From NCBI GenBank assembly GCA_017525245.1, contig JAFXTE010000042.1, positions 1 through 53,037 of the forward strand: a stretch of 53,037 bases of DNA. Direction: 5' to 3'. The translations under genes and the position numbers were made by a program. The notes beneath the pieces were generated by a model, which was not told the origin of the DNA, did not search any database, and saw nothing but the letters and a program-made list of their open reading frames with translations. Positions 32,268 through 48,502 of the stretch are shown piece after piece (the first letter of the stretch is position 1; the number at the start of each line of letters is the position of its first letter). The stretch comes from Bacteroidales bacterium. GTDB taxonomy: Bacteria; Bacteroidota; Bacteroidia; Bacteroidales; WCHB1-69.

Positions 32268-32273
32268 CATCGT

Positions 32274-32585
32274 CAATCTTCCGTGGCCCGTTGACGGGTT
32301 TGCGGGCGGGCGACAGACATAAAAGGCGTTGAGTCAACGTCTTATCTGCGGCTATCTGAATCTCGCAAATTCAATGAGCATCCGCACGATAAGGCAATGT
32401 TCAATGCCCATGGGATTGTATATTCTCGGCAGGGACACGATTTTCTCATCCTCGCCAAACGGATTGTCAATAATTCGTTCAATATACAACAGCGTGGGCT
32501 TCGGCATTGCTTATCCTCGGATGCAAGGCAATGCGAGAGCCTAGATAGCGGGATGAGCGATGAACTCAGATTCCCGCGCTTTTTT
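32274..32585 (+). ncRNA. Candidate long rod-shaped structured RNA
   Basis: Between a -7 box and an intrinsic terminator lie about 310 bases that fold back on themselves. Successive arms pair in order: 32351-32357 with 32543-32549, 32361-32367 with 32532-32538, 32378-32384 with 32518-32524, GATAA 32388-32392 with 32511-32515, GCAATG 32394-32399 with 32505-32510, 32406-32410 with 32495-32499 and the 9-bp 32416-32424 with 32481-32489. The 5' part has hairpin CCCG/CGGG (32287-32298) and palindrome 32327-32339. The long bulged rod recalls 6S RNA but is longer. No RNase P, tmRNA or SRP signature is present. Confidence 0.65.
32548..32585 (+). terminator. Intrinsic terminator of the candidate RNA
   Basis: GCGGGA (32548-32553) pairs with TCCCGC (32572-32577), with inner TGAG/CTCA support, followed by GC and six T residues. 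Confidence 0.65.
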
Positions 32586-32666
32586 ATGTGGTTTAGTTGA
32601 GTAATTGTTTCTGTCCGGAATCGGGAGTCGCCGGAGGGTGAAAATGGGGATGGTAGTCCCCGTGAG

Positions 32667-33455: not shown

Positions 33456-34721
33456 ATGATAGAATTATCCAAAGGAACGAGAATAACATTGTCGAACGGC
33501 GGTTATGTGACCATTAAGAAGGAACTTGGACGCGGTGGTCAGGGAATTGTCTATTTGGTGGATTACAACGGCAAGGATATGGCGTTGAAATGGTATCTGA
33601 ACGCTCCGGACAGCTGTTTTTACAACAATCTCAACAACAATATTCTGAATGGAGCACCGAGTGATGCTTTTCTTTGGCCAAAGGCACTTGCCGAACGTCA
33701 ACAAGGTAGTTTCGGATACCTTATGGATTTACGACCTGGCAACTATTTCGAGTTTGGAAACTTCTTGATGGCGAAAGTCAAGTTTGCCAGTTTCGACGCG
33801 ATGCTGAACGCTGCTATGAAGATATGCAATGGCTTCATGATGCTCCACCGTTTCGGTTACAGCTATCAGGACTTGAACGATGGCAACTTCTTCATCGATC
33901 CGAAAACAGGAGACGTTCTCATCTGCGACAATGACAATGTGATGCCCCAGGGCGAGAAGTCCGGCATCATGGGTAAAGCCCGCTATATGGCACCCGAAGT
34001 AGTGGCCGGGGGCATACCCGACAAGTACAGCGACCGCTATTCGTTGTCCGTCATCCTCTTCATGCTCTTCTATGTCAACCATCCGCTCGAAGGTGCAAAG
34101 GTTGTTGCCTGTCCCTGTATGACTGAGACTTACGAGAAGAAGTTTTACGGAAGTGAGGCGGTATTTATCTATAACCCCAACGACAAAAGCAACCTCCCTG
34201 TTCGCGGGATCCATCAAAATGTCATTCGCCGCTGGCCGGCTTTGCCTGCAATTCTGCGGAATACGTTCACTCGTGAGTTTAGCGAAGAAATGCTCCGAAA
34301 TCCGCAGAAACGTATGCTTGAGCAGAATTGGGAGAAGTTGATAGCAACCCTGCGCGATAGCCTTGTTATCTGTCCCCATTGCAAAGGAGAAACCTTTATC
34401 GAAGAGGGCAAGAGCATGTGTATGAACTGTGGAAAGGATGTAGAAGTTCCTCTATCGCTTAAAATAGGCAATCGAAATGTCTTTCTAACAGGAGGTACCA
34501 AACTCTATATTGACCACGACAACAATGCCGATGTGCTGGTGTTAAAGGATGCAAAAGCAGGATTATTGCTCTTAAAGAATCTTTCATCGGATACTACATG
34601 GACGGCTGAAACTCCTAGCGGAAAGTTGAAAACAGTTGCACCTGGAGAGTGTGTGCCAGTGAAGGAGGGAATCAAAGTCTCTTTCAATCAAACGACCAAA
34701 GGAGAAATAATATCAAGATAA
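33456..34721 (+). CDS. Serine/threonine protein kinase of a TerY-P-type triad
   Basis: The 421-residue protein has an N-terminal kinase domain (about 15-310). Glycine loop GRGGQG (25-30), Lys45 in ALKWY, catalytic loop YQDLNDGNFF (Asp139, Asn144), metal site CDND in place of DFG (158-160) and MAPE (178-181) are visible. A CPHC...CMNC zinc ribbon (about 302-323) follows, then a beta-rich end (about 335-421) resembling the FHA-like tail of such kinases. With a vWA protein and a PP2C phosphatase next to it, it forms the TerY-phosphorylation triad described for tellurite-resistance-linked stress loci. HRD is replaced by YQD, but the catalytic Asp is kept. Confidence 0.9.
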   Translation: MIELSKGTRITLSNGGYVTIKKELGRGGQGIVYLVDYNGKDMALKWYLNAPDSCFYNNLNNNILNGAPSDAFLWPKALAERQQGSFGYLMDLRPGNYFEFGNFLMAKVKFASFDAMLNAAMKICNGFMMLHRFGYSYQDLNDGNFFIDPKTGDVLICDNDNVMPQGEKSGIMGKARYMAPEVVAGGIPDKYSDRYSLSVILFMLFYVNHPLEGAKVVACPCMTETYEKKFYGSEAVFIYNPNDKSNLPVRGIHQNVIRRWPALPAILRNTFTREFSEEMLRNPQKRMLEQNWEKLIATLRDSLVICPHCKGETFIEEGKSMCMNCGKDVEVPLSLKIGNRNVFLTGGTKLYIDHDNNADVLVLKDAKAGLLLLKNLSSDTTWTAETPSGKLKTVAPGECVPVKEGIKVSFNQTTKGEIISR

Positions 34722-34723
34722 CT

Positions 34724-35095
34724 ATGCCTGAAATTACACCTTTAAGCGAAGCTGCGTTTGTCACACTGGCGATGTGTGAAAAAACAAAGAAGCCCTATGG
34801 AATTACCGTAGATAAGGGGGGATTTGGTTTGTATAAGATGGTGTGGTCTTTCAAAATCGATTATGAAAAGGCTCAAAGAGAAGGGTATGATCGCATCAAG
34901 GTGTCTGGAAGAATCGTCGAAGATGCAAACTTTCCTGGGTGTCCTTATTGTGAATCTAAACACTGGTATAGTTGTAATAATTGCCATACAATTATATGTT
35001 ACCATGGTCAAAGTCATGTTACTTGTCCAAAATGTGGTTGTAAAGGGGAAATAACCCAAGTTGAAAAGATTAATATTGAAGGAAGTGCATATTAG
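34724..35095 (+). CDS. Stand-alone TerY-C-like zinc-binding protein
   Basis: The start is the ATG at 34724, two bases after the kinase stop; the longer frame from 34649 overlaps the kinase. The 123-residue protein has a C-terminal cysteine/histidine cluster at about 70-107 (CPYCESKHWYSC, then CHTIICYHGQSH and CPKCGC). This pattern is like the TerY-C metal-binding domain that usually ends TerY vWA proteins. The vWA protein next door lacks that domain, so here it seems to be split off into its own gene. The first 65 residues have no clear family. Confidence 0.65.
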   Translation: MPEITPLSEAAFVTLAMCEKTKKPYGITVDKGGFGLYKMVWSFKIDYEKAQREGYDRIKVSGRIVEDANFPGCPYCESKHWYSCNNCHTIICYHGQSHVTCPKCGCKGEITQVEKINIEGSAY

Positions 35096-35153
35096 TAGCA
35101 TTGAAACTATATAGAAAAAAGAAATTTTAATAATAACGTAAAAACATATCATT

Positions 35154-35894
35154 ATGTCACTTTTAGACGAAACCGTAGAAATTCCGCGTCGCACGATGAC
35201 GCTTTTCTTCATGATTGACACCTCCGGCAGCATGGCCGGCAGTAAGATTGGTGCCGTAAATGACGCCGTGGTCAATGTTCTTCCCATGTTGGAGGAAATT
35301 TCCGCAGAAAACCCCGATGCAGAAATCAAAGTGGCTGCATTGGAATTCTCCACCACCTGCCATTGGCTCTATAACGAGCCCAAACCCGCTAATGAGTTTG
35401 TCTGGCAAGATGTTCAAGCATCAGCACTTACTTCTCTCGGTGCTGCTTGCAAAGAATTGTCAGGCAAACTGTCCAGAAGTGGATTTATGAAATCCGCCAG
35501 CGGCTCTTTCGCACCTGCTATCATATTGCTTTCTGACGGAGCTCCAACGGATGATTTTGAATCAGGACTTGCTGTGTTGAAAAACAACAATTGGTTCAAG
35601 GCCGCCATCAAGGTGGCTGTGGCGATTGGAGAAGATGCAGATAAAGAAGTGCTGGCACAGTTCACCGGGACTAACGAAGCCGTTTTCACTGTCCACAATA
35701 TTGAAGCCCTGAAGCAAGTGATTCGTGTTGTGGCCGTTACTTCCTCACAGATCGGCAGCAAGAGCAGTACGGCTGGCGATACAACCAAGCAGGAACAAGT
35801 AATCGCAGAAGTGAAGTCAGCGGTTGACAATATCGGCGGCGCTGAAGTGGCTTCCGCTCCATCTTCAACCGTTTCCTACGATGATTGGGATTAA
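35154..35894 (+). CDS. TerY-like von Willebrand factor A protein
   Basis: The 246-residue protein is a single vWA domain. The MIDAS motif is FMIDTSGSMAGSKIGAVNDAV (Asp22, Ser24, Ser26), with later LTSLGAAC (Thr near 95) and LLSDGAPTDD (about 124-133). It fits TerY-type vWA proteins, which bind metal and protein partners in the TerY-P triad. It ends with a low-complexity tail (about 205-246). The phosphatase gene starts 14 bases before its stop, so translation is coupled. Confidence 0.88.
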   Translation: MSLLDETVEIPRRTMTLFFMIDTSGSMAGSKIGAVNDAVVNVLPMLEEISAENPDAEIKVAALEFSTTCHWLYNEPKPANEFVWQDVQASALTSLGAACKELSGKLSRSGFMKSASGSFAPAIILLSDGAPTDDFESGLAVLKNNNWFKAAIKVAVAIGEDADKEVLAQFTGTNEAVFTVHNIEALKQVIRVVAVTSSQIGSKSSTAGDTTKQEQVIAEVKSAVDNIGGAEVASAPSSTVSYDDWD

Positions 35895-36939
35895 GTGCTT
35901 TAACAGCCATTGTCAGGGAGAAAGCCACAAAGCAACGGACAAGCCCTGCCAAGACTTTTCGTTCAGTATCAAAACGGAAGGTTATGCTATCGCTATGGTC
36001 AGTGATGGCCATGGCGGGGAACGTTATTTTCGTAGTGATGTGGGATCGAAGATAGCAGTGGAAGTGGCTCACCGATGTTTAGTGGAGTTTGCAGAGGGCA
36101 TTTCCCCGTCCTTGTTTGCTGATTTGCCGAGCACACCAGTTGGCATTGGCGACACCTATCATCCTGAACTACAGCGATTAGTGGAAGCAATTGTGGTAGG
36201 GTGGCGGAATGCCGTCTTGGAACATGCAACGGCAAATCCCTTAACCGAGACAGAACAACTCATATCAAATCCGAAAGATGATCATGAGTGGGAGAAGACG
36301 TATGGTTGCACGCTCATTGCGACACTCCTTACCCCTAAGTTTTGGCTGGCGTTTCAGATAGGCGACGGAAAATGTGTGGTCATTGACAAAGAGGGAGTCC
36401 CTTACGAACCGATTCCATGGGATGACAAATGCTTTCTAAACAAAACCACCTCTATTTGCGACACGGATGCAGCAAGAGAGTTCCGATATTGCATTGGGGG
36501 CAAAGAGTCTTTCCCGATCGCAGTGTTTATGGGCAGCGATGGCATTGACGACTCGTTTGGCGAAGAAGAAAACCTGTACAATTTCTATATTCAATTGGCC
36601 AAAGGTTTTGCCAAGGATGGATATGAAGCCACCATTGCTGATTTGATAGCGACATTGCCCGTCCTCAGCAAGCGGGGAAGTCAAGATGACATGTCTGTGG
36701 CGGGGTGGTATGATGAGCGATTGGAAGGTATGACAACTCAATTGTCAGCTTGGCAGGTGCAACGCTTGATGACCAAACAGAAGACTCTTGCTAGTAAGAT
36801 TGCTTCAGCCTGGCATCAAATTATTTATGATCATCCACCAGTGCCGACAAAAGACTCCTTGTTCTCTGAATTATTACATTTTGGGAACGAAAAGATGTTA
36901 ATTGATAAAAAGATAGCACACATAAAAGAAGACAAGTAA
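35881..36939 (+). CDS. PP2C-type protein phosphatase of the triad
   Basis: The 352-residue protein has the metal-dependent PP2C fold: CQDFSF (Asp25), MVSDGHGGERYF (Asp42, Gly43), MGSDGIDDSF (near 220) and SQDDMSVAGW (near 270). The start at 35881 overlaps the vWA gene by 14 bases. It should reverse the action of the kinase at 33456. Residues 280-352 form a helical extension with no recognised domain. Confidence 0.9.
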   Translation: MIGIKCFNSHCQGESHKATDKPCQDFSFSIKTEGYAIAMVSDGHGGERYFRSDVGSKIAVEVAHRCLVEFAEGISPSLFADLPSTPVGIGDTYHPELQRLVEAIVVGWRNAVLEHATANPLTETEQLISNPKDDHEWEKTYGCTLIATLLTPKFWLAFQIGDGKCVVIDKEGVPYEPIPWDDKCFLNKTTSICDTDAAREFRYCIGGKESFPIAVFMGSDGIDDSFGEEENLYNFYIQLAKGFAKDGYEATIADLIATLPVLSKRGSQDDMSVAGWYDERLEGMTTQLSAWQVQRLMTKQKTLASKIASAWHQIIYDHPPVPTKDSLFSELLHFGNEKMLIDKKIAHIKEDK

Positions 36940-37004
36940 TAACTTGGTGCGGTGTTGTTAATGAGATTATCATAATAACGAAATCCTAGTTTACTCAAGA
37001 ATAA

Positions 37005-38261
37005 ATGGCACAAAACGAATTACATATTGCTGTTAAACAGGCTATTTTCGATCTAGGGAAAAAAGCTATCAAAGAGGATACCTTTTACGGTGTTTTGTTG
37101 GATTATAACGCATATCCTCAGAATCCGATTGTAAGTTCAAACCTAAAGAGTGTTATGAAAGACATCCTCAATGAAGGCTATGGAAGAAAGGTGTATTATT
37201 GGTCAACTCATCCAAGTGTTGGTTGGAAAACCCTAAACGATAAGTTTATAGATGGTTTTATTAGGAAAACCCAACATGATTCCGCGTCTGTTAACACAGT
37301 ATCCGAAGCTCTTTTATATGGAATAGGATTGATCAACGATATTACAATTACTTGGCAGAATATAAATGTAACCAGTGAAAATCCGGATTCGTTGTCCAAG
37401 CTAAAGGATGCTTATTTGAAATTACTCATCAATTCAATAACAATAGAAGAGGATTCTTCAGGCCTTCAATCGGCCTATTATACACCCGAATCTAATGCTG
37501 AATTGTTTGCGTTGGAAGAAAAGATAAGAAACGCTTATGAGATTCTTTCTTCTAAATATGATAATTGGTGTGACATCAAAAAGAATAGTTTTTTGAAAAA
37601 AGTTCAACAAGATATTGATTCTAAAAATGCGATAATTAAAAATAAAATCCGAAAACAAAAACGCAGACGCAACCGAAGAATAATTTTGGCTGTTTTGATA
37701 GGCTTTGTTGTTTTTGTGATAGTTATTTCAAACCATGAATATAATAAAGCCAAACCTTATATAGCAGCCTTTGAATCTTCAATCGCATTGGGAGATAGTG
37801 CTGCAGAACAACATGATTATCTTTCCGCATTGAATCACTACCGGCAAGCCGCTGATAATTATACATGCATTTGGGCTACTGATCAGTATAGAGAAGAAGC
37901 AATGCAAAAACGATTGGAACTTATCCTTGGTTTATGCGACAAATGTGTGCAGAAGAGTAAAGATTATTTATCAAATAGCACCTTACCTTCTCCGAGTGAT
38001 TGCTATATGGTAAAAAATTTGTTGGACAGCATACCATCAGATGAGATATTAACAAACGAAGAAACAGAAGCGAAAAACGCCCGTCTTGTCGAAGTTGATT
38101 CGATCCTTAATGATGCAATTGAAAAAAATATAGTAGAACTGTTAAATGGTATTTCAAATAATCGTGGAGAACGCACAACAGCTATACTATCAAAAATAGA
38201 CACACTCTTGTTGTGTGATAAAGACAATTATTGGTTACACATCATCAAAGAAAAAAAGTAA
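37005..38261 (+). CDS. Unrecognised membrane protein with island-specific N-terminal domain
   Basis: The 418-residue protein is not recognised as a whole. Its first ~70 residues (LHIAVKQAIFDLGKKAIKED, then LLDYNAYPQNP and ILNEGYG) match the N-terminus of the protein at 42552 (LQIALKHAVDDLGFDVLKSP, then LADYHALDVHDP and LVAENYY). A very basic stretch (KIRKQKRRRNRR) precedes one transmembrane helix (about 226-243). The C-terminal half is helical with a TPR-like unit (LSALNHYRQAADNY, about 270-283). It overlaps the HxsA start by one base (TAATG). Confidence 0.7.
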   Translation: MAQNELHIAVKQAIFDLGKKAIKEDTFYGVLLDYNAYPQNPIVSSNLKSVMKDILNEGYGRKVYYWSTHPSVGWKTLNDKFIDGFIRKTQHDSASVNTVSEALLYGIGLINDITITWQNINVTSENPDSLSKLKDAYLKLLINSITIEEDSSGLQSAYYTPESNAELFALEEKIRNAYEILSSKYDNWCDIKKNSFLKKVQQDIDSKNAIIKNKIRKQKRRRNRRIILAVLIGFVVFVIVISNHEYNKAKPYIAAFESSIALGDSAAEQHDYLSALNHYRQAADNYTCIWATDQYREEAMQKRLELILGLCDKCVQKSKDYLSNSTLPSPSDCYMVKNLLDSIPSDEILTNEETEAKNARLVEVDSILNDAIEKNIVELLNGISNNRGERTTAILSKIDTLLLCDKDNYWLHIIKEKK

Positions 38262-39151
38262 TGAAAAGGCATCAGAAAAAATTGATAAAAGCCCTGTTGA
38301 TTTCTGCAGCATATTCTTTGGTAAACACTACAGCAAAAGCTGAAATAATAATTCCGGAGTTGTTGGATAGCGATGACAAGAATTGCTCTGTGGATCAGCT
38401 TGTTAAAACAAAAACATACCATAATGTCATTAAAATGGGGCCTTCTGGCAATCTCTATGGTGTAAATGACCATCGATCACACAGTTCTCACCGATCTCAT
38501 AGTTCTCACCGATCGAGTAGAAGTGGTCACAGCTCTCATTATTCAAGTTCTCATTATTCGAGCAGTAGCAGTTATAGGTCTTCAAGCAGTAGTTCAGGAT
38601 TAACCAGTGGAGCTACAAGTCTGTACTCTACTCCTAAAAAGACATTTGAAACATATTCATTAGGGGATCGGACATTGAAAAAAGGTCTTTATGGAGCAGA
38701 TGTTGATGTATTGGTTCGCAAGTTGATAAATTATCAATACTTGCGATCCGATGGTCTAAAGCGACAATCAGGGTATTACTTGTTTGATAATCAGGTGGAA
38801 CAAGCTGTAAAGTATTTTCAAGAAGATGCTTCGCTTACAGTTAATGGTGTTGTTGATAGCAGTACTGAAAATGCCCTATTAGTTTGGTCTTCATCTAAAA
38901 CTCATCTGCGATTAGGGGTGCGCGATTTATATGTGGGTTGCTCTGGAGAAGATGTGGAAACATTAATACAATTGCTAAACAAGGCAAATTGTCCGCCCAA
39001 TCCTGAAAAATTCAAAATAGATAATGATATGTATATCTACACGGATGATATTGCTACCGCTGTTCGTGTGTTTCAAGCATTTGCAGGATTAACGGTAACA
39101 GGACGCGCTGATTTAACGACTATCAATAAACTTAAAGCTTCAACCAAATAG
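38261..39151 (+). CDS. hxsA: His-Xaa-Ser repeat protein HxsA
   Basis: The 296-residue protein is the presumed substrate of the His-Xaa-Ser system. A signal peptide (about 1-24, ending NTTAKA) is followed by an acidic stretch and the repeat region at about 74-115, with HRS, HSS, HRS, HSS, HRS, HSS, HYS and HYS triplets in a serine-rich context. The C-terminal ~165 residues hold two peptidoglycan-binding (PG_binding_1-type) units: VEQAVKYFQEDASLTVNGVVD and IATAVRVFQAFAGLTVTGRAD. The start is the ATG overlapping the upstream stop. The His-Xaa-Ser side chains are probably modified by HxsB and HxsC; the modification is not known. Confidence 0.9.
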   Translation: MKRHQKKLIKALLISAAYSLVNTTAKAEIIIPELLDSDDKNCSVDQLVKTKTYHNVIKMGPSGNLYGVNDHRSHSSHRSHSSHRSSRSGHSSHYSSSHYSSSSSYRSSSSSSGLTSGATSLYSTPKKTFETYSLGDRTLKKGLYGADVDVLVRKLINYQYLRSDGLKRQSGYYLFDNQVEQAVKYFQEDASLTVNGVVDSSTENALLVWSSSKTHLRLGVRDLYVGCSGEDVETLIQLLNKANCPPNPEKFKIDNDMYIYTDDIATAVRVFQAFAGLTVTGRADLTTINKLKASTK

Positions 39152-39158
39152 AAAGCAA

Positions 39159-39458
39159 ATGATAGAATTCATAATAGATAGAACAATTTATTCCGACGCT
39201 TGTATCACCAAGAGCATCTACGCATTGTCGAAGGATTACGACTGCCAACGTTCTATGAGTGGTACAAAAGAATCTGTCAAGATGACTCCACGTGACACAT
39301 CAGTTTCCGAGGAGGGTGCCCGACATGCTTTTCTTCAGATGCTGAACGACTATAAGGCGCGTGAAATCATTGCTTCTGAGACAAAAGATATTCGCACAAT
39401 ACTGTATGCAAAAGCGTTTGCCGATTGTGACGATTTTGATGAGGAGGTTGAGCAATGA
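39159..39458 (+). CDS. hxsD: His-Xaa-Ser system protein HxsD
   Basis: The 99-residue protein sits between HxsA and the radical SAM enzymes, the expected place and size for HxsD. It begins IEFIIDRTIYSDACITKSIYALS, which has the strand-then-helix look of the family, and has a C-terminal helical part. It may bind the substrate as a recognition element, as small proteins in other radical SAM peptide systems do. It overlaps hxsB by four bases (ATGA). The call relies mainly on context. Confidence 0.8.
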   Translation: MIEFIIDRTIYSDACITKSIYALSKDYDCQRSMSGTKESVKMTPRDTSVSEEGARHAFLQMLNDYKAREIIASETKDIRTILYAKAFADCDDFDEEVEQ

Positions 39459-40855
39459 AAAACTATTATCTTCTTCCATTCGATTTTACCCGCATTGCCA
39501 ATCATGAGGTATTGGTGAATGAGTTTGGCGACATGTTGGTGTTGCCCGATGGTAGTGTGGATAAGATTGTAAACCACCAGCTGGAAGAAGATGATACCTA
39601 CAAAGACCTTGTAGCAAACTATTTCATCAGCGAGAATAGGATTCCTACCAATCTCGATATCTATGCTTCCCGACTGCGTGAGAAGAAACGTTTTCTGGAT
39701 GATTTTACGGCTCTGCATATTTTTGTTGTCACCCTCCAATGCAATCAAAACTGCGTCTATTGTCAGGCATCAAGCCGGACGGAACAAAGTGTTCATTGCA
39801 CCATGTCGTTCGACACGATGGAGAGTGCCGTCAAACTGATGTTCCGTTCTCCAGCACCCGTGCTGACAATGGAATTCCAAGGAGGCGAACCGAGTTTGCA
39901 TCCAGAACTGATACGATTTGGTATAGAGACAGCAGAACGTATCAATGAAAGTGAGAATCGCAAGATGCGATATGTTCTTTGCACCAACAGTGTCCATTTA
40001 ACCGATGAGATGCTGGATATTTGCAAGCAGTATCAGGTTATGATTTCCACTTCGCTGGATGGTCCGTCATTTTTGCATAATGCGAATCGAGGAAAAACCG
40101 ACAGCTACGAGAAAGTGGTGGCCGGTATAGAGAAGGCTCGTCAAGCTTTGGGCTTTGATATGGTTTCCCCATTGCAGACGACTTCGATAATGGCGTTGGA
40201 TTACCCAATAGAGATTGTGGACGAGTATGTGAGAATGGGATTCAATGGGATTTTCCTCAGAGCTTTGAATCCGTACGGATTGGCTGCGTATAACCAAAAC
40301 TGGTGTCAGTACACCGAGCGTTTCATCGAGTTCTACAGAACCGCTTTCGAGCATGTTCTGGAGATAAACAAACAGGGAACCTTCTTTATGGAGGAGTTTG
40401 CCGTGATTGTCCTCCGCAAGATACTGACTCCTTTCTGCACAGGGTTTGTTGACCTTCAATCGCCAGCCGGTATCATCAATTCGGTGTTGGTGTATAACTA
40501 CGACGGATATGTATATGCATCCGACGAGTCGCGTATGTTGGCCGAAAACGGCGACAACACCTTCCGATTGGGTAGTGTCCACGATCGGTACGAAGATATT
40601 GTTTTTGGTCCAAAGGTGCAAAGGATAGCACAAATATGGGCTAACGAAACTCTCGCCGGTTGTTCCGACTGTGCTTTGAGAAACTATTGTGGAGCCGACC
40701 CTGTGCGCAACTATTCCACTCAGGGCGATATGTACGGGCATCGCCCCACCTCTTTGCTTTGCAAGAAGAACAAAGCCATTATTGAGTATTTGATTACGCT
40801 GATTATTGAGCGTAAAGAAGAAGTACTTCCCATCTTTAAACGCTGGCTGCTATGA
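39455..40855 (+). CDS. hxsB: His-Xaa-Ser system radical SAM maturase HxsB
   Basis: The 466-residue enzyme has an N-terminal extension (about 1-85), then the radical SAM cluster motif CNQNCVYC (Cys96, Cys100, Cys103) and the GGEP-type SAM motif FQGGEPSLH (about 140-148). The C-terminal SPASM-like cluster region contains GCSDCALRNYCGAD (near 408-421) and a late Cys (LLCKKN), enough for auxiliary iron-sulfur clusters. It should modify HxsA in the cytosol before export. It overlaps both neighbours by four bases. Confidence 0.92.
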   Translation: MKNYYLLPFDFTRIANHEVLVNEFGDMLVLPDGSVDKIVNHQLEEDDTYKDLVANYFISENRIPTNLDIYASRLREKKRFLDDFTALHIFVVTLQCNQNCVYCQASSRTEQSVHCTMSFDTMESAVKLMFRSPAPVLTMEFQGGEPSLHPELIRFGIETAERINESENRKMRYVLCTNSVHLTDEMLDICKQYQVMISTSLDGPSFLHNANRGKTDSYEKVVAGIEKARQALGFDMVSPLQTTSIMALDYPIEIVDEYVRMGFNGIFLRALNPYGLAAYNQNWCQYTERFIEFYRTAFEHVLEINKQGTFFMEEFAVIVLRKILTPFCTGFVDLQSPAGIINSVLVYNYDGYVYASDESRMLAENGDNTFRLGSVHDRYEDIVFGPKVQRIAQIWANETLAGCSDCALRNYCGADPVRNYSTQGDMYGHRPTSLLCKKNKAIIEYLITLIIERKEEVLPIFKRWLL

Positions 40856-41724
40856 GGACGGAATTTGACATCAACTCTAACGACAATGCTTTGTTCGTAA
40901 CAGCTCAATGCAACAACCATTGTTTGATGTGCTGCCAACCACCTGGTAAGGTGGATGATATTGAGTCTTTGTATGAGCACAACATACAGTTGTTGTATTC
41001 AGCCCCAAAAGAATTGAAGGTGCTGGGTATTACCGGAGGCGAACCTACTTTGCTTGGAGGCAAATTGATTACTCTTTTGCAAGAAGTTCGTAAATGCCTG
41101 CCAGAAACTGCCATTCAATTATTGAGCAATGGACGTGCTTTCAAGGATACTGCTTTTACACGAGAAGTATGTCAAGCTGCGGGAGAGAACTTTTTTGTTG
41201 GAATTCCATTCCACTCGGATTATTCCGGGGACCACAACTTGATAGCAGGCAGTAAACACGCCTATGATGAGACGATGACAGGATTGTACAATCTTGCTGA
41301 TGCTGGTGTTGAGATTGAACTGAGAGTGGTCGTCAATAAACTCAACTATACTAGATTACCAAGAATGGCTGAATACATTTTCAAAAATCTGCCGTTTGTT
41401 GCATGGACCGCTTTTATGGGAATGGAAAGAGTTGGTTTGTCTGTTAAAAATGCAGAGAAAATTTGGGTGGAACCCAATGAGTACGCTCCCATATTGCGAG
41501 AGGCTGTAATGGCAATGGACGATTGGCGAATGGATGTGGCCATCTACAATATCCCTTTGTGTCTGTTGCCGCACGATTGCTGGCCGTTTGCAAAACAAAG
41601 CATTTCCGATTGGAAAGTGAAGTTCCTTGCAATCTGCAATGATTGTGATGTGAAAGAGATGTGCTGTGGCTTATTCAGCACTTCTAAATGTAAATTTCAG
41701 GGAATAAAACCAATGAACCTCTAA
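40852..41724 (+). CDS. hxsC: His-Xaa-Ser system radical SAM maturase HxsC
   Basis: The 290-residue radical SAM protein has CNNHCLMC (Cys20, Cys24, Cys27) near its start, GITGGEPTLLG (about 60-70) as the SAM-binding motif, and a C-terminal cysteine group (CNDCDVKEMCCG and CKF, near 261-284). It lacks the long N-terminal extension of HxsB. The gene overlaps hxsB by four bases, so the two are made together. With HxsA, HxsB and HxsD the system is complete. Confidence 0.92.
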   Translation: MRTEFDINSNDNALFVTAQCNNHCLMCCQPPGKVDDIESLYEHNIQLLYSAPKELKVLGITGGEPTLLGGKLITLLQEVRKCLPETAIQLLSNGRAFKDTAFTREVCQAAGENFFVGIPFHSDYSGDHNLIAGSKHAYDETMTGLYNLADAGVEIELRVVVNKLNYTRLPRMAEYIFKNLPFVAWTAFMGMERVGLSVKNAEKIWVEPNEYAPILREAVMAMDDWRMDVAIYNIPLCLLPHDCWPFAKQSISDWKVKFLAICNDCDVKEMCCGLFSTSKCKFQGIKPMNL

Positions 41725-41755
41725 AAGAGTATTAAAGAAAAAACTATCTGTTATC

Positions 41756-42523
41756 ATGGAAAAAACGAATCAGGATCAATATTTCAAAAAAGGGCTAAGC
41801 TTTTACGAACAAGAGGATTATCTCACCGCCATTGAGTTTTTTCAGGCGGAAATTGAAAATAGTCCCCGTAATGAAACTGCATACTTGTATCTGTCCAAGT
41901 GTTATAAGAACACTGGAAAAGAACTGGTACATAGAAAAACTTTGCATAGATTACTCTCTATCAATCCAAACAATCAAGATGCTTTGAAAGAACTATCCAT
42001 AAACTTTGGGGGTGAGAATATGTTGTACAATAAGGGAGCGTCTCTCAACACGCCAATCTATTACGGATGCGTTGATGAAAACAAACAACCCCATAAGTAT
42101 GGAACATTCATCCGACCCGATGGCACATTTTATAGCGGCTGTATGCGACATGGTACAATGTATGGTGAGGGTATCATGAAAAGTTCAAATGGAGCCGTTG
42201 TCATCTCACATTTTAACGATGATGTTGTTGAGAACGGGCTAATACTTTTGCCATGCGGCACAAAAATAGAGGGATATTTGAAAAACTCATTGCCTTGCGG
42301 GCGGTGTACGATTACTTTATCCAACGGGATAATAATAGAGGGAACGTTTCATGGATCAGAATTAGATTCCAAAGAGGAATGTACTGTAATAGATAATACA
42401 GGAAATGCTCTGACGGGGCATTTTATAAATAAGGTGTTTGTCCCGACCAATAAAGATGCCGACAGAATTGATGCCGAGCTTGTGGCAAGCATTATCAAAT
42501 GTTGGCCAAATATAAAATTCTAA
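41756..42523 (+). CDS. TPR protein with MORN-like repeats
   Basis: The 255-residue protein has two TPR units at the N-terminus (about 8-75: YFKKGLSFYEQEDYLTAIEFF, then AYLYLSKCYKNTGKE and HRLLSINPNN). MORN-like beta-repeats follow (about 110-215), such as KYGTFIRPDGTFYSG, YGEGIMKSSNG and CGTKIEGYLKN. Its TPR part is paralogous to that of the protein at 46541 (RLLSINPNN against RLLSINPDN). No signal peptide is seen, so it is probably a cytoplasmic scaffold. Confidence 0.78.
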   Translation: MEKTNQDQYFKKGLSFYEQEDYLTAIEFFQAEIENSPRNETAYLYLSKCYKNTGKELVHRKTLHRLLSINPNNQDALKELSINFGGENMLYNKGASLNTPIYYGCVDENKQPHKYGTFIRPDGTFYSGCMRHGTMYGEGIMKSSNGAVVISHFNDDVVENGLILLPCGTKIEGYLKNSLPCGRCTITLSNGIIIEGTFHGSELDSKEECTVIDNTGNALTGHFINKVFVPTNKDADRIDAELVASIIKCWPNIKF

Positions 42524-42551
42524 TTATATTGTATCTTTTATAGATCCATCA

Positions 42552-43109
42552 ATGAGTTCCGAGACCTTACAAATTGCCCTTAAACATGCCGTTGACGACC
42601 TCGGTTTTGATGTGCTTAAATCGCCGAACCTTGTAAACATTTTGGCGGATTATCACGCTTTAGATGTGCATGACCCCGTGTTGAAAGAGAAGAAGGGTGT
42701 CATCAAATCTTTGGTGGCGGAAAATTATTATGATAAGATTTCAGAATGGCGAAATAAAGCTGATACATATTGGGAAAGTAAGGACAGCGATTGGTTGAAT
42801 AGATTTTGTAATAAAACGAGTCTGAAAAGGACTGTGGTGGAGCCGATTGCTGATTCTATGAAAATTGTGGCTGGTCTCAAACAATCAATCTGTAATCAAG
42901 AAGACATCGAGGAAGAACAGAACAAAAAAGTAGATTCAGATAAACGAATCTCCGAAAAAACAATCGATCGGAAAAAAGCAATGAATCAAGAAGAAAAGGC
43001 TGTGTTTTCAGTCATTATAATTGTGTGTGTTATTTTTATAGGAGTATTGATTTCACTTATAGGGCTTCTTGCTGTTTTGGGCATTTTTTTACGGAATTAT
43101 CCCTTTTAG
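42552..43109 (+). CDS. Small membrane protein sharing the island-specific N-terminal domain; 3' end altered by an IS
   Basis: The 185-residue protein has the same ~70-residue N-terminal domain as the protein at 37005, a charged linker and a C-terminal transmembrane helix (about 150-178). The transposon at 43092 is inserted within its last codons: the final residues RNYPF and the stop (43107-43109) are read from the transposon end. Removing the transposon and one copy of the 8-bp duplication puts a TGA directly after IFL, so the original protein was probably 180 residues long. The insertion is therefore nearly neutral for this gene but may separate the downstream genes from their promoter. Confidence 0.75.
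   Translation: MSSETLQIALKHAVDDLGFDVLKSPNLVNILADYHALDVHDPVLKEKKGVIKSLVAENYYDKISEWRNKADTYWESKDSDWLNRFCNKTSLKRTVVEPIADSMKIVAGLKQSICNQEDIEEEQNKKVDSDKRISEKTIDRKKAMNQEEKAVFSVIIIVCVIFIGVLISLIGLLAVLGIFLRNYPF
43084..43091. repeat. Target-site duplication, left
   Basis: TTTTTTTA, identical to 45488-45495. Eight bases is the duplication length expected for IS1595-family elements. Confidence 0.85.
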
Positions 43110-43162
43110 TCTTGTAAACCAAATTCACAATAAGTTGAATTGAGAAATACGTAGCAAACACT

Positions 43163-44020
43163 TTACCTTTGTGGTGGCAATGGTTTTGCTTTCATTGTGC
43201 GTAGATATGATATAGCAGATGGAGGTATTTCGGTTGTCGTATATATACCTTTCGGTTCGTTTATATCATAATAAAAGTGTGTCAATTCATTCAGTTTTTT
43301 CAAATCTACGACAAATATCGCATAAATATCCGTTAAATTTGGTATGTTCTTTTTTGCTGCTTGACCATAAAGAGAATCCACCAATGCTTGCAAGTCTTCT
43401 TCGGTCGCTGTACCTTCAGACAAGAAAACACGTTCTTCTGAATATTGATATTCGGGATTGTCATTTGATGGTTTCAATCCATTCTTTAGGATTTTCTCTT
43501 TGAAAATGACGGGGGCTGCGTGATAAACAATATCAGATTCGGCATAAATTGTCTCCGTCACATCATCTGGTTTACTTGGTTCAAAACGCATATCAATCCA
43601 CTTTCTTTTCTTACGGTCAACAAGTAAATTTTTGTCAGTTGGTTTGCTTCTGAAAAAACCAAGTGTTCTCATAGATTCTTCTATTATCTCAATGTTGTTG
43701 TCGGTTACTGCGATAAGCAATGCCGCATACAAACCGTGATTTCCCTCTACAATAACAAACTGTTCTTCACTTATCGGAAATGTTGATGTGATTATATCTT
43801 TTACTTTGGTTATCTGTTCCAAATAATCTGTACCTTCACAAACACGCCTCGTTGACAACGGATGTCTGTGGTCTATTTTGAGTAAATACGGATTATACCG
43901 TTTCCATCCTTTGTCAAGTATTGACATAGGAATCTTTTCCAAATCAAAAATATCATCTTTTGTGTTTTCCTTTCCGATATATGATTCTTTAATAAATTCT
44001 TCAGAGGTTTTTATTTTCAT
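43163..44020 (-). CDS. Transposon passenger gene, possibly ADP-ribosyltransferase-like
   Basis: The 285-residue protein is not firmly recognised. The C-terminal part reads YHAAPVIFKEKILKNGLKPS (about 170-189), then YSEERVFLSEG (about 197-207) and IFVVDLKKL (about 234-242), then GIYTTTEIPPSAI (about 258-270). The order H-x-A, I-xx-GL-x-P, R-V-F/Y-L and a late E/P-rich strand resembles KptA/ART-type ADP-ribosyltransferase folds. The N-terminal half has a WKRYNPYLLKIDHRHPLS stretch and EGNHGLYAALLIA. It could be a toxin-like cargo. The fold call is an inference from motif order only. Confidence 0.4.
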   Translation of the reverse strand: MKIKTSEEFIKESYIGKENTKDDIFDLEKIPMSILDKGWKRYNPYLLKIDHRHPLSTRRVCEGTDYLEQITKVKDIITSTFPISEEQFVIVEGNHGLYAALLIAVTDNNIEIIEESMRTLGFFRSKPTDKNLLVDRKKRKWIDMRFEPSKPDDVTETIYAESDIVYHAAPVIFKEKILKNGLKPSNDNPEYQYSEERVFLSEGTATEEDLQALVDSLYGQAAKKNIPNLTDIYAIFVVDLKKLNELTHFYYDINEPKGIYTTTEIPPSAISYLRTMKAKPLPPQR

Positions 44021-44114
44021 AAATCACGCTTTTCCTATATTTATAAACCGATTTAGCACGCAGCAAAATACAAAAAATCACTCGTATAAATATTGAAAAT
44101 ATAAATTTGAAACT

Positions 44115-44447
44115 ATGACACACATTAAGAGAATTGACGAAATGGCAAATACACAGCAAAACAACTTGTTTGATGCGGTGAAAAACGAATTGACAATAGG
44201 TATGCCATATAACGATGCTGCAAATATATTAAGAAAACACGGTTTATTGTTATCCGAATACGGCAATGTACAATATAACAAACAAGACCATTGTTATGCG
44301 GAATATAATTTGACTGGTGAACGTGGACAATGCCCCAAAATTGTTTTGTATTACACATTTGTGAAAGTACCAAATAAACGTGATTCTTGGGTTGCTGGTG
44401 ATACTTATGACATCGAATTTTATGCGGAAGACGGTGTTATTGAATAA
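44115..44447 (+). CDS. Transposon passenger gene, unrecognised small protein
   Basis: The 110-residue protein (or 101 residues if the second ATG at 44142 is used) has no recognised family. Its first half is helical (GMPYNDAANILRKHGLLL) and its second half is beta-rich (KIVLYYTFVKVPNK, TYDIEFYAED). It is divergent from the ART-like gene, with 94 bases between them, and sits inside the transposon, so it may be a partner or immunity factor. Its stop is three bases from the transposase stop (convergent). Confidence 0.55.
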   Translation: MTHIKRIDEMANTQQNNLFDAVKNELTIGMPYNDAANILRKHGLLLSEYGNVQYNKQDHCYAEYNLTGERGQCPKIVLYYTFVKVPNKRDSWVAGDTYDIEFYAEDGVIE

Positions 44448-44450
44448 TAT

Positions 44451-45383
44451 CTATGCTGCAATACCTTTAATTCCCAACCCGACCAAGTGCGTCCAAGCAC
44501 TTTCAATGTCACGGTGGTTGAGGCGATAGCAAAACTCGTCAACATACTCTTGCAGGTGCTTAACCGAAACGTGGTGGTATATCCCGTACACACCACGTTT
44601 TAATATTGCCCAACAACTCTCAATGCCGTTGGTATGCTTGCCGTCACCGAGCGAATAGGTCATACTGTGGTCAACCTTGATGTGGACATATTTCTTCTCG
44701 GTATTGCCGTCCAATATACCATAACTGCTTAATTGGTCGGTCATAACGGTTGTGTCCTTCTTACAAACCTCATCCAAAATGCTTAACAACTGTTTGCCGC
44801 TCAACTTCTTGCCCTCCTTGTTAGGCATAGCAATAACGGCGTGAATCCTGCCGCTGCTGCGCTCAAGAACCCCGACAACGGGTGTTTTGTTTGTTCCCCT
44901 GCCACGCTTGCTTTTCTTGGTCTTCTTTCCCTTGTGGGTGTTTTCTTTACGAGGTTTGCCACCCACATAGGTTTCGTCAATCTCCACAATCGCCTCAAAA
45001 GCGTTCTTGTGGGTTTCAGTACCCATTGCCGTTCTAATCAACCGCAACATCCTAAACGCACCCTTGTAGGACTTCATACCCAACTCCCTTTGCAGTTGCA
45101 GTCCGCTTATGCCTTTGCGGGCGATAAGCACGAGGTTTATGGCGAACAACCACATACGAATATCAAGGTGTGTATGCTCAAAGATAGTCCCCGTAAGGGC
45201 GGAGAACTCGCTTTTGCAGTTATTGCAGTAAAGGTTGCGGTGGTTGTAGCGTTGGTGGTAGATTTTGCGGTGTACGCACCCGCATTTCGGGCATACATAC
45301 CCGTCCTTGTACTTGGTCTCAACGATGAAATCTATCGCATCGTTCTCGGTCGGAAATCTCTTGAAAAAATCGAACTGGTTCAT
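44451..45383 (-). CDS. IS1595-family transposase
   Basis: The 310-residue transposase has an N-terminal zinc ribbon (CPKCGC and CNNCKSEF, about 30-61) and a DDE-type ISXO2-like catalytic domain with EIDETYVGG (about 132-140), TDQLSSYG (near 213-220) and NGIESCWAILKRGVYG (near 250-265), where Asn/Glu completes the acid triad. The frame is uninterrupted and both ends of the element are present, so it may be active. Confidence 0.95.
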   Translation of the reverse strand: MNQFDFFKRFPTENDAIDFIVETKYKDGYVCPKCGCVHRKIYHQRYNHRNLYCNNCKSEFSALTGTIFEHTHLDIRMWLFAINLVLIARKGISGLQLQRELGMKSYKGAFRMLRLIRTAMGTETHKNAFEAIVEIDETYVGGKPRKENTHKGKKTKKSKRGRGTNKTPVVGVLERSSGRIHAVIAMPNKEGKKLSGKQLLSILDEVCKKDTTVMTDQLSSYGILDGNTEKKYVHIKVDHSMTYSLGDGKHTNGIESCWAILKRGVYGIYHHVSVKHLQEYVDEFCYRLNHRDIESAWTHLVGLGIKGIAA

Positions 45384-45487
45384 ACTCTTTGATTTTGAAT
45401 ACGTTGCAAAGGTACGAACTCTTTAGACACGACTATGATTTTTGCTATTAGCAGAAATCCGTTACAAGACTAAAAGGGATAATTCCG

Positions 45488-45495
45488 TTTTTTTA
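45488..45495. repeat. Target-site duplication, right
   Basis: TTTTTTTA, matching 43084-43091. The next three bases (TGA) restore the original stop codon of the gene at 42552. Confidence 0.85.
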
Positions 45496-45541
45496 TGATT
45501 AGTTAGGTGGTAAACGTTAAAAATTCAGATTTAGATTTGTT

Positions 45542-46498: not shown

Positions 46499-46540
46499 TA
46501 TAGAGTCATTATTTATGAGTGAAACGTCTAATTTTAAAAT

Positions 46541-47374
46541 ATGGACAAATTGAAACAAATTGATGGATGCCCCGGTGAAGACTATTTCGCCATGGGTGTT
46601 GACGATTTCGAGAATGGGGATTTCAAACGAGCTATGGAATTTTTCCAAGCTGCTATTGAACAGAATCCGTATTTGGAGCAAGCCTATCTGAAGCTTGCAG
46701 AGGTCTATTTTTCTCTTAACGACGAAAGGAATGCAAAGAAAACACTTTATAGGTTGTTGAGCATAAATCCAGACAATAGTCATGCACAAAAACTGTTGCG
46801 CCCATCCCCAAAAGGTTCAAATCTCTGTGTAGACAAAGTAGAGACCGTCAATTCAGAAATCACCTCTACCAAAAGTAAAGCTCCACTTACAGCTGTGATA
46901 GCTAAAGCTGGCAGTTTGTCTGACACACGGCTTGACATTAATAAAACATATTTGATAGACCTTCCCGATGGAAACAAAATATACTTGGATGTTTTTACTT
47001 CGTATCGTGATAAAAATAAACGTTATTTTGGTAAAATTGTAAGATATTATCAAAGACCCCAAGGTGATTTGAGCATACCATCGTCGGTCCTCATCAAGGG
47101 CAACCACATAACCATTACTCAAATCAGCTCACATGCTTTTAGTTTTTGTGACAAATTAATAAGTGTTGAGATTCCTCCGACTGTAACGATAATTGGAGAT
47201 TATGCTTTTCCAGATTCTGCACTTCAAAAGGTTACGTTTTTGGGTGAATGGCCTCCCAAAATTGAACTATTTACATTCGGTGGTCATCAAACTATTATTC
47301 AATTCTTCGTTCCCGAACCATATATTCAAAATTACCAAAAATATCTTCCTCGTTATACATTAATTCCTTTTTAA
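46541..47374 (+). CDS. TPR protein with BspA-type leucine-rich repeat end
   Basis: The 277-residue protein has an N-terminal pair of TPR units (about 12-85) paralogous to the protein at 41756. After a linker, there is a beta-rich segment (about 145-200) and BspA/LRR_5-type repeats: ITQISSHAFSFCDKLISVEIP and VTIIGDYAFPDSALQKVTFLG (about 195-240), ending EPYIQNYQKYLPRYTLIPF. No signal peptide is seen. The two TPR paralogues bracket the transposon and AbiH gene. It ends two bases before the next gene. Confidence 0.8.
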   Translation: MDKLKQIDGCPGEDYFAMGVDDFENGDFKRAMEFFQAAIEQNPYLEQAYLKLAEVYFSLNDERNAKKTLYRLLSINPDNSHAQKLLRPSPKGSNLCVDKVETVNSEITSTKSKAPLTAVIAKAGSLSDTRLDINKTYLIDLPDGNKIYLDVFTSYRDKNKRYFGKIVRYYQRPQGDLSIPSSVLIKGNHITITQISSHAFSFCDKLISVEIPPTVTIIGDYAFPDSALQKVTFLGEWPPKIELFTFGGHQTIIQFFVPEPYIQNYQKYLPRYTLIPF

Positions 47375-47376
47375 TT

Positions 47377-48471
47377 ATGAGTACCTGTAAATACTGTGGA
47401 CAAAAAGCCGGACTCTTTTCCGACTGTCATAACGAATGCGAAGCGAAACATGCCCAAGGGCTTGTGCGGTTACGTACGCTCATGGACGATTATTTCCGTA
47501 ATCCCAACGGGGTCACAACTATTCTCCAAGAATACCAACAGTTGGTTAAGGAACATTACCTGAACAGAGAGGATATTGCAAATATTGCGGGAGCGGCTAT
47601 CGACCGATACGCTGATTCGCTGCACAGACCGTTCTCCGCGTCAATCTTGCAAATAGTCTCGCAGTTCCTGATCCAGTTCAAAGTGTCTTATTCCGACGCA
47701 AACCAATCAGGGGCAATAACACGGTTGTCGCAGAAAATCATCAAGGGACATATCGCCGACTATTTCACTGGTGCCATTGACATTGCCCAAATGCAAGGAC
47801 GTATTCACAAAGTCATCAGTTCGTTTCCCATTTTGCCAGACGACATCAACGAGACCTATCAGTATATGCTCAACAAGGCTGCCGACAACTTTTTGAAAGA
47901 TGGTCAATTGTCTGGACAAGAGGAACATCTTTTGAACCAGTACATGGCTGCACTGAATATTCAAGTCCAGAATCTGCCAGTTAAGTATCAGAGCGGAAGC
48001 ATCACTAGAATTGCACAAAACAGCATCTTAAACAATATACAAGCCGGCAATCTACCAAATCAACCTTCAATGCTGCCTATCGTGTTGGGTAAAGGTGAGT
48101 CCTTGCTTTGGACATATAACAATGTGACATTGTATCAGGAAAAGATAGAAAAAGAGTATGTTGGCCGTCATAATGGTGTCAGTGTTCGCGTAATCAAAGG
48201 AGTAACTTTGCGCACGGGTAAAATGAAAGGGAAGCCAGTAGAACATAGTTACATGAACAACATGGGAACAGGGGAGCTTTATGTGACCAACAAGCATCTG
48301 ATTTTCCAATCCCCAACAAAAGCCGTCAAAGTGCCCTTCGCAAAACTGATAGGCATCACTCCTTATACAGATGGGATTGAGGTTCACAAAGAAGGCGATG
48401 CAAAACGGTTGGTGTTGCAAGGCTTCGACAGTTGGTTTGTGATGTGTCTGCTCCAAATTGTCAATCAATAG
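47377..48471 (+). CDS. Zinc-ribbon protein with PH-like C-terminal domain
   Basis: The 364-residue protein opens with a zinc ribbon (CKYCGQKAGLFSDCHNEC, about 4-21). A long all-helical middle (about 25-225) contains two similar segments of about 60-70 residues each (SGAITRLSQKIIKG and SGSITRIAQNSILNN), suggesting an internal duplication reminiscent of TerB-like helical domains. The C-terminal ~110 residues (TGELYVTNKHLIFQSP, VPFAKLIGITPYTDGIEVH) look like a bacterial PH/GRAM-like domain. It ends the one-direction cluster. Confidence 0.65.
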   Translation: MSTCKYCGQKAGLFSDCHNECEAKHAQGLVRLRTLMDDYFRNPNGVTTILQEYQQLVKEHYLNREDIANIAGAAIDRYADSLHRPFSASILQIVSQFLIQFKVSYSDANQSGAITRLSQKIIKGHIADYFTGAIDIAQMQGRIHKVISSFPILPDDINETYQYMLNKAADNFLKDGQLSGQEEHLLNQYMAALNIQVQNLPVKYQSGSITRIAQNSILNNIQAGNLPNQPSMLPIVLGKGESLLWTYNNVTLYQEKIEKEYVGRHNGVSVRVIKGVTLRTGKMKGKPVEHSYMNNMGTGELYVTNKHLIFQSPTKAVKVPFAKLIGITPYTDGIEVHKEGDAKRLVLQGFDSWFVMCLLQIVNQ

Positions 48472-48502
48472 GTGTTTTAACACTGTGAAACTATTCGTCA
48501 AT

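What the first reader, a model, noticed from the sequence alone, without database searches (positions are those of the whole stretch)
33456..48471. TerY-P phosphosignalling triad combined with a complete His-Xaa-Ser radical SAM system and AbiH in one probable operon
Fourteen plus-strand genes (excluding the transposon) lie with overlaps or short gaps: kinase, TerY-C-like protein, vWA, PP2C, membrane/TPR protein, HxsA, HxsD, HxsB, HxsC, TPR-MORN, small membrane protein, AbiH, TPR-LRR and zinc-ribbon/PH-like protein. The triad and the HXS system are each known; I know of no described system uniting them. A testable model: kinase/phosphatase state and the vWA chaperone-like protein control maturation or export of the modified, peptidoglycan-binding HxsA, with AbiH and channel as stress effectors. 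The model is inference.
Basis: partly seen in the sequence, partly recalled or inferred. Interest (0 to 1): 0.9.

Follow-up and report, generated by a model that had tools for sequence, protein, structure and literature searches.

The report
Kinase-switch immune-like operon with modified envelope protein
A gut-type bacterium carries a conserved gene cluster in which a kinase/phosphatase switch is joined, probably through a membrane protein, to enzymes thought to modify a cell-envelope protein; some relatives carry the same switch beside DNA-processing enzymes instead, so this looks like one version of a swappable, possibly anti-virus, stress system.

Summary
In detail: 14 plus-strand genes, 33456-48471, gaps of 65 bp or less except one 2.4-kb IS1595-type element. 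A TerY-P-type triad (kinase, vWA, PP2C) is really united with HxsADBC, and the union is conserved: on one contig in 6 other loci and, split over two contig ends, in a seventh. Triad and HXS trees agree except for one locus, where the HXS cassette was exchanged inside a nearly unchanged scaffold. The unit is larger than stated: a K+ channel (32667-33428) and an endonuclease with an export signal (48458-49297) belong; AbiH was found in no relative. The probable link is MemTPR (37005-38261): helical adaptor domain, one TM helix, outer part, directly before hxsA in 8 of 8 loci. The same adaptor is fused elsewhere to FGE and to a DUF4011-helicase-nuclease; 4 of 6 triad loci without HXS carry helicase, nuclease or restriction genes. 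So HXS looks like one interchangeable arm of a multi-effector phosphoswitch system, here beside SIR2-HerA. Function is inferred, not shown. Side finding: a covarying leader RNA of about 320 nt without an Rfam match precedes this and other operons.

The parts
32252..32590 (+). Candidate structured leader RNA: TAnnTTTG boxes (recalled consensus) at 32252/32260, terminator-like stem and T-run at the 3' end, 83 nt before the first ATG
   Evidence: Conserved upstream of the kinase in L042 and L064; folding z -4.67; covariation over 20 chosen copies; no Rfam match; spacing. Against: the two-box promoter pattern was not found there
32667..33428 (+). Voltage-gated-type K+ channel (TTVGYGD filter, recalled motif); lies between leader and kinase, absent there in G008
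   Evidence: PF00520 E 4e-26; filter; also in L025, L026, L027, L028, L054; L042 lacks it at this place
33456..34721 (+). Ser/Thr kinase with C-terminal zinc ribbon and beta-rich-looking tail (triad member)
   Evidence: PF00069; invariant C306, C309, C322, C325, D139, N144, D158 in A4
34649..35095 (+). TerY-C metal-binding protein
   Evidence: PF15616 30.8 bits, cut-off 28.4; also L027 (partial), L042, L054, L065, L072, L073
35154..35894 (+). vWA protein with DxSGS motif (triad member)
   Evidence: PF00092 E 3.5e-10; 79-100% identical in the seven other HXS+triad loci
35824..36939 (+). PP2C phosphatase (triad member)
   Evidence: PF13672 E 5.5e-33
37005..38261 (+). MemTPR: N-terminal adaptor domain (1 to about 115), one TM helix (226-244), C-terminal outer part; directly before hxsA
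   Evidence: Adaptor alignments A1/A5, AF2 model pLDDT 87, TM and flanking charges, position in 8 of 8 HXS+triad loci, window included; no Pfam match
38231..39151 (+). HxsA-like: signal-peptide-like N terminus (by eye), HxS run, two peptidoglycan-binding stretches
   Evidence: PF01471 E 3e-19, TIGR03979 below cut-off, alignment A3
39159..39458 (+). HxsD
   Evidence: TIGR03976 72.9 bits, cut-off 50
39455..40855 (+). HxsB radical SAM maturase
   Evidence: TIGR03978 564.5 bits, cut-off 370
40852..41724 (+). HxsC radical SAM maturase
   Evidence: TIGR03977 324.5 bits, cut-off 267.9
41756..42523 (+). TPR protein with MORN-like repeat
   Evidence: Weak TPR/MORN matches below Pfam cut-offs; TPR part similar to P0016 relatives and to TPR-FtsK of L058
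42552..43109 (+). Second adaptor-domain protein with C-terminal TM helix; its 3' end lies in the IS repeat
   Evidence: A1, TM 154-172, repeat position
43091..45488 (.). IS1595-type element with passenger ORF (43163-44020, -) and transposase (44451-45383, -); insertion, not part of the system
   Evidence: 27-bp perfect inverted repeats, PF12762
45542..46498 (+). AbiH-domain gene; probably a hitch-hiker
   Evidence: PF14253 E 3e-24; no match in relatives compared
46541..47374 (+). TPR + LRR_5 protein
   Evidence: PF14559, PF13306; relatives in L026, L028, L057
47377..48471 (+). Zinc-ribbon/helical/PH-GRAM-like protein (ZnPH), in 8 of 8 HXS+triad loci
48458..49297 (+). DNA/RNA non-specific endonuclease with hydrophobic N-terminal, export-signal-like stretch
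   Evidence: PF01223 E 4e-48; N terminus and VRGH where DRGH is usual (recalled motif)

Best explanation
This is a modular, multi-effector TerY-P-type phosphoswitch system of Bacteroidales, most likely for defence against phages or other mobile DNA, in which the His-Xaa-Ser (HXS) module is one interchangeable arm placed at the envelope. Proposed working. (1) HxsB/HxsC, with HxsD, modify the HxS run of HxsA, which is exported and binds peptidoglycan (families shown; modification and export inferred). (2) MemTPR couples this outer protein to the cytoplasm through one TM helix and a cytoplasmic adaptor domain (domain, TM helix and gene position shown; contact inferred). (3) Kinase, vWA and PP2C set the phosphorylation state of adaptor-bearing complexes; a change in envelope state, such as phage entry, switches it (inferred). 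(4) Outputs are a K+ channel (depolarisation) and an exported nuclease; in several loci without HXS the same switch sits with helicase, nuclease or restriction genes, some of them carrying the same adaptor domain (genes shown, action inferred).
For: Linkage of triad and HXS in 6 other loci on one contig (L026, L027, L028, L031, L042, L054), plus G469 with the two halves at contig ends in the order seen in L054. Co-occurrence tests. Without L042 the STK+vWA and HxsB+HxsC trees have the same shape; L042 has 96% identical triad DNA and an 86% identical 3' end but 67% identical HXS pieces, and each data set rejects the other's grouping (AU p 0.0003 and 0.009): cassette exchange. Adaptor domain in 6 of 393 order genomes, 4 of them kinase-positive: in G000, G279 and G302 within the triad locus, in G469 on its HXS contig. 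Adaptor fused to FGE (L064, L073) and to DUF4011-helicase-MTES nuclease (L058, PADLOC PDC-S37 1255 bits). The MemTPR homologue of an HXS locus without triad (L051, G157) lacks the adaptor domain (one case). Neighbours: SIR2 (549 bits) and HerA (817 bits) at 28126-31635, AbiEi/DUF6088 downstream. A passage of PMC11090510 reports TerY-P-like modules acting as stand-alone antiphage systems.
Against: No functional data. HXS is not obligatory: 3 of 6 kinase-positive order genomes and 1 of 4 kinase-positive family genomes lack HxsB, and 12 of 15 HxsB-positive order genomes lack the kinase. The adaptor is missing from 2 of 6 kinase-positive order genomes (G312, G448) and present in two without the kinase (G425, G485). 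L025 has HxsB 92% identical to the window's without a triad in 3.8 kb upstream (contig end) and 10 kb downstream. PADLOC gives no match for vWA or PP2C. In known EAD systems a core protein carries the adaptor; here no triad protein does. The nuclease motif is VRGH in the window and no RGH was found in three relatives; in L054 the nuclease gene is divergent. A defence-island address can be hitch-hiking.
Confidence: 0.55

Rival explanations
1. Envelope or metal stress-response operon, not immunity: the TerY-P switch senses a metal or oxidant and HXS makes an envelope repair or metal-binding protein; channel and nuclease serve homeostasis.
For: TerY-C protein and zinc ribbons in kinase and ZnPH; His-rich HxsA; the same leader RNA precedes a TerD-type operon with two vWA genes in G063.
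Against: Loci where the triad sits with helicase/nuclease, Type ISP R-M and PDC-S37 genes and the SIR2-HerA neighbour fit conflict better; patchy distribution (6 of 393).
Confidence: 0.25
2. Two independent systems (triad and HXS) that sit side by side in a defence island by accumulation.
For: Each occurs without the other; block order varies: ZnPH-HXS-triad in L027/L028, triad-HXS-ZnPH in the window.
Against: Seven other linked loci, matching trees, MemTPR with the triad-associated adaptor domain directly before hxsA, near-continuous gene overlaps.
Confidence: 0.12
3. Offensive arm: HxsA and the exported nuclease act on other bacteria, with triad and channel as regulators.
For: HxsA diverges fast where the maturase is conserved (window against L026: HxsB 94%, HxsA 54%); nuclease N termini look like export signals.
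Against: No secretion-system or immunity gene among the operon proteins scanned; HxsA has peptidoglycan-binding domains; a lipobox pattern (recalled motif) was found in 2 of 10 nuclease N termini (L042, L052), others only resemble one by eye.
Confidence: 0.08

Closest known systems
TerY-P triad (passages of PMC11090510; Anantharaman et al. 2012 recalled only)
   Same: Ser/Thr kinase with C-terminal zinc ribbon, vWA, PP2C, TerY-C; association with varied DNA-processing and restriction modules
   Different: TerY-C is a separate gene and missing from some loci; kinase about 26-28% identical to one from a ter operon; coupled to HXS and to adaptor-domain proteins
His-Xaa-Ser system HxsABCD (NCBIfam models; passages of PMC9062424)
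   Same: HxsB, HxsC, HxsD over cut-offs; HxS-repeat precursor
   Different: HxsA below its cut-off and with peptidoglycan-binding domains; a TonB_C variant in L026 and, by similarity, L025; MemTPR upstream; linked to the triad
EAD-coupled conflict systems (PMC7159879: passages, sections 29 and 30)
   Same: Small helical domain shared by varied proteins (FGE, helicase-nuclease, membrane proteins) in one operon; kinase-zinc ribbon, PP2C and vWA neighbours are described there for some GAP1-N2 systems
   Different: Adaptor copy not fused to a triad protein; no MoxR, VMAP or GAP1 component named among the window proteins scanned (not searched for by dedicated models)
Type II/III-A CoCoNuT systems with TerY-P (PMC11090510 passages)
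   Same: TerY-P as accessory switch beside nucleic-acid-targeting machinery
   Different: No McrBC-like or CnuH/CnuE-like gene named among the window proteins scanned (not searched for by dedicated models)

Membership tests
TerY-P triad | vWA, PP2C and kinase encoded together | tested here: met
TerY-P triad | Kinase with C-terminal zinc ribbon | tested here: met
   Invariant C306, C309, C322, C325 behind the kinase domain in the 12 sequences of A4
TerY-P triad | TerY-C domain in the system | tested here: met
   PF15616 above cut-off, as a separate gene
TerY-P triad | Match to defence-database models | tested here: inconclusive
   PADLOC-DB: no match for P0004 or P0005; kinase matches kinase models only; not checked that a TerY-P model is held
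His-Xaa-Ser system | HxsB, HxsC, HxsD | tested here: met
   All over curated cut-offs
His-Xaa-Ser system | HxsA precursor with HxS repeats | tested here: inconclusive
   Repeats present; TIGR03979 26.5 bits, cut-off 121.65
His-Xaa-Ser system | HxS run is chemically modified by HxsB/HxsC | not testable with these tools
   Needs mass spectrometry
EAD-coupled conflict system | Same small domain on several proteins of an operon | tested here: met
   Two copies in the window; further copies on FGE and helicase-nuclease proteins elsewhere
EAD-coupled conflict system | One copy fused to a core component | tested here: not met
   Own genome has two matches, on P0006 and P0012, none on kinase, vWA or PP2C
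Anti-phage defence system | Protects against phage | not testable with these tools
   Only genomic context: SIR2-HerA and AbiEi-type neighbours

The most novel reading that the evidence does not exclude
HXS radical-SAM maturation builds an envelope-anchored sensor for a kinase-switched immune system: a modified, peptidoglycan-bound HxsA reports envelope breach by phage through a transmembrane adaptor to a TerY-P switch that can be wired to any adaptor-tagged effector. This would be the first role for HXS known to me and a new way of coupling a post-translationally modified envelope protein to phosphosignalling.
Probability: 0.35. Interest if true: 0.88.

Novelty: new variant of a known kind. 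Interest (0 to 1): 0.72.

Why it matters
My searches for HxsB and His-Xaa-Ser (listings, and passages of one paper) turned up no paper that assigns HXS a function; most subscription papers are not held. A recurrent, swappable link to a TerY-P switch gives HXS a testable context and suggests that such triads act as a hub for both envelope and DNA-directed arms. The adaptor domain is a handle for finding further effectors.
Full report
OBSERVATION. The ORFs are as described. Pfam and NCBIfam support kinase, TerY-C, vWA, PP2C, peptidoglycan-binding HxsA, HxsD, HxsB, HxsC, AbiH, TPR and LRR proteins; HxsB, HxsC and HxsD pass their curated cut-offs, HxsA does not (26.5 against 121.65 bits) although it carries an in-register HxS run. 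Neighbours overlap or lie at most 65 bp apart, apart from a 2432-bp gap that holds an IS1595-type element with perfect 27-bp terminal repeats. The same-strand run begins with a K+ channel 27 bp before the kinase and ends with an endonuclease overlapping the ZnPH gene by 14 bp. The window is contig C38 of a genome of 94.3% completeness and 6.5% contamination, so the source is a draft assembly. The order is taken to be Bacteroidales because the family genome G086 shares a contig (same length and gene map) with the named record L031.

HOW COMMON. HxsB over its cut-off: 3 of 104 family genomes and 15 of 393 order genomes. The window's kinase (E <= 1e-30): 4 of 104, 6 of 393, and 1 of 395 phylum genomes, that one being the window's own. 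Both: 3 of 104 (G000, G008, G086) and 3 of 393 (G000, G279, G469). Fisher p values are 2e-5 and 8e-4, or 6e-4 and 0.011 without the window's genome; genomes are related, so these are guides only.

LINKAGE. A genome-contig scan with HxsB gave 10 loci; with those fetched from the sampled genomes I mapped genes by BLAST against the window proteins. Of 12 distinct loci other than the window with HxsB at least 60% identical to the window's (L025, L026, L027, L028, L031 [same contig as L041], L033 [same contig as L053], L034, L042, L051, L052/L060, L054, L055), 6 have the triad on the same contig, 1 (G469) has it on a second short contig with both halves at contig ends in the order of L054, 4 lack it in the sequence held (L025, L033, L051, L055) and 1 (L034) begins inside HxsB. 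L027 and L028 are close relatives (96-97% identical in these proteins). The other HxsB loci (about 40-53% identical: L029, L030, L032, L043-L050, L056) have no triad in the sequence held. In the seven linked loci MemTPR is directly before hxsA in 7 of 7, ZnPH present in 7 of 7, the endonuclease in 6 of 7 (divergent in L054; the L031 contig ends in ZnPH), the K+ channel in 4 of 7, TerY-C in 3 of 7 (one cut by a contig end), AbiH in 0 of 7. A further family lies near HxsC in 6 of 7 and has no counterpart in the window at the thresholds used. Block order varies.

CO-DIVERGENCE AND SWAPPING. STK+vWA and HxsB+HxsC trees of the eight loci have the same unrooted shape once L042 is set aside, though some inner branches have support below 95. 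L042 is the exception: its kinase and vWA are 98% and 100% identical to the window's, yet HxsB is 68% and HxsA 46% identical, while the window's HXS groups with L026. AU tests reject the opposite grouping in each data set (p 0.0003 and 0.009). DNA identity is 96% over 33415-36826, 67% in two aligned pieces between 38471 and 41427, and 86% over 47371-49305. The K+ channel sits between the conserved leader and the kinase in the window and is missing there in L042. These are signs of cassette exchange inside a fixed scaffold.

THE ADAPTOR. The N-terminal part, about 115 residues, of MemTPR and of the second small membrane protein is one domain (invariant L31, D33; nearly invariant A9, G18, A36, G108 in A5), predicted all-helical (pLDDT 87). 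It occurs in 6 of 393 order genomes: G000, G279 and G302 in the triad locus, G469 on its HXS contig, and G425 and G485, which have no kinase match and no triad match in the fetched stretch; in G425 it is on a protein with a metallo-beta-lactamase-like region that Pfam supports only weakly. Two kinase-positive order genomes (G312, G448) have no adaptor match. The domain is fused to FGE in L064 and L073 and to a DUF4011-helicase-MTES nuclease in L058 (PADLOC PDC-S37, 1255 bits). Six close triad loci lack HXS in the sequence held (L057, L058, L059, L064, L072, L073; the four G genomes among them also lack HxsB over the cut-off genome-wide). Of these 4 of 6 carry helicase, nuclease or restriction genes in or directly beside the cluster: PDC-S37-like plus TPR-FtsK (L058), Pif1 (L064), Type ISP R-M (L072, IMG/VR contig), UvrD-exonuclease and FtsK (L073, Prevotella plasmid). 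L059 has a ZorA-like match and a MotB-plug match below cut-off. MemTPR has one TM helix with 10 K/R in the 14 residues before it and 2 in the 14 after; in the homologues the count before is higher or, in L054, equal, so the adaptor is probably cytoplasmic. The MemTPR homologue next to hxsA in L051, a locus without triad, lacks the adaptor domain and its genome G157 is not among the six adaptor-positive genomes: one case only. By its pattern the domain resembles the effector-associated domains of PMC7159879 (section 30), but the defining copy on a core protein was not found.

CONTEXT. Directly upstream on the other strand lie HerA (817 bits) and SIR2 (549 bits), a PADLOC-type SIR2-HerA pair, and an AlbA/ATPase-like gene; downstream a DUF6088/AbiEi-type gene. 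I read this as a defence island.

READING. I commit to a modular phosphoswitch system with an envelope arm, function probably immunity. Shown: recurrent linkage, shared adaptor domain, swapping, domain make-up, address. Inferred: phosphorylation of adaptor proteins, HxsA modification and export, sensing, killing or protection. Novelty: triads with varied partners and HXS systems are each known; searches for TerY-P with radical SAM (0 papers), TerY-P triad (3 listed), HxsB (3 listed) and His-Xaa-Ser (3 listed) brought up no report of the union, but I saw only passages of PMC9062424 and PMC11090510, passages plus sections 29 and 30 of PMC7159879, and listings of the rest.

LEADER RNA. From about 32268 to 32590 lies a conserved stretch, 85% identical upstream of the kinase in G008 and 74% in G069. 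Matches occur in 37 of 103 family genomes (E <= 1e-8), up to six per genome, some partial, and in 5 of 109 order genomes, the window's own included, where the four others give mostly partial 3' matches. An alignment of 20 of the 25 copies held (L118, L122, L130, L132 and L137 left out) folds into a long rod with 17 covarying pairs; 97.9% of cells pair, against 41-47% when slid, and 0 of 500 shuffles reach the covariation score, while the number of further pair types does not exceed shuffles (134 of 500). No Rfam family matches at E <= 10. The 5' block can pair with the 3' terminator half, which suggests attenuation; most of those pairs never vary, so covariation is silent there. Of 23 copies (24 stretches searched for an exact terminator string) 17 have the next ORF on the same strand, 12 of them with ATG 57-94 nt after the T-run, and 6 on the other strand, against 5 of 22 same-strand ORFs upstream (mechanical ORF calls). 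Downstream genes include this operon, a TerD-type operon with two vWA genes (TerD by Pfam, vWA by eye) and a helicase plus methylase pair.

Noticed in passing
window 32268-32590 (+); L042:1844-2189, L064:6535-6842, L117:9780-10160, L119-L138: Multi-copy, covarying leader RNA of about 320 nt with terminator, no Rfam match, upstream of varied operons (ter-type, R-M, this system), often at a near-fixed distance to the start codon; possibly a new RNA family acting by attenuation.
   Followed up: partly
window 28126-31635 (-): SIR2-HerA pair (PADLOC 549 and 817 bits) next to the operon.
   Followed up: yes
window 51134-51598: Shortened second endonuclease-like ORF similar to the 3' part of the EndoNS gene of L042.
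   Followed up: partly
window 49696-50328 (+): DUF6088/AbiEi-type gene downstream of the system.
   Followed up: no
L026:8957-9706 and L025:2758-3552: HxS-repeat proteins with a TonB C-terminal domain (L026 by Pfam, L025 by similarity) in place of peptidoglycan-binding domains, beside HxsDBC.
   Followed up: partly
L026:12270, L027:7298, L028:12278, L042:10929, L052:233, L054:4339: Protein family near HxsC in 6 of 7 other HXS+triad loci, without counterpart in the window; no Pfam match for the L026, L027 and L054 copies.
   Followed up: no
L118:4145-5819 (own genome C52): Partial leader-RNA copy upstream of an ORF with reverse-transcriptase-like motifs (by motif only).
   Followed up: no
L026:15169-15951, L028:19376-20086: Homologous proteins that look by eye like nucleotide cyclases in two HXS+triad loci; Pfam gives no support for the L026 copy.
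   Followed up: partly
L059:3646-6492 (-): Second vWA with ZorA-like and weakly MotB-plug-like proteins beside a triad without HXS.
   Followed up: partly
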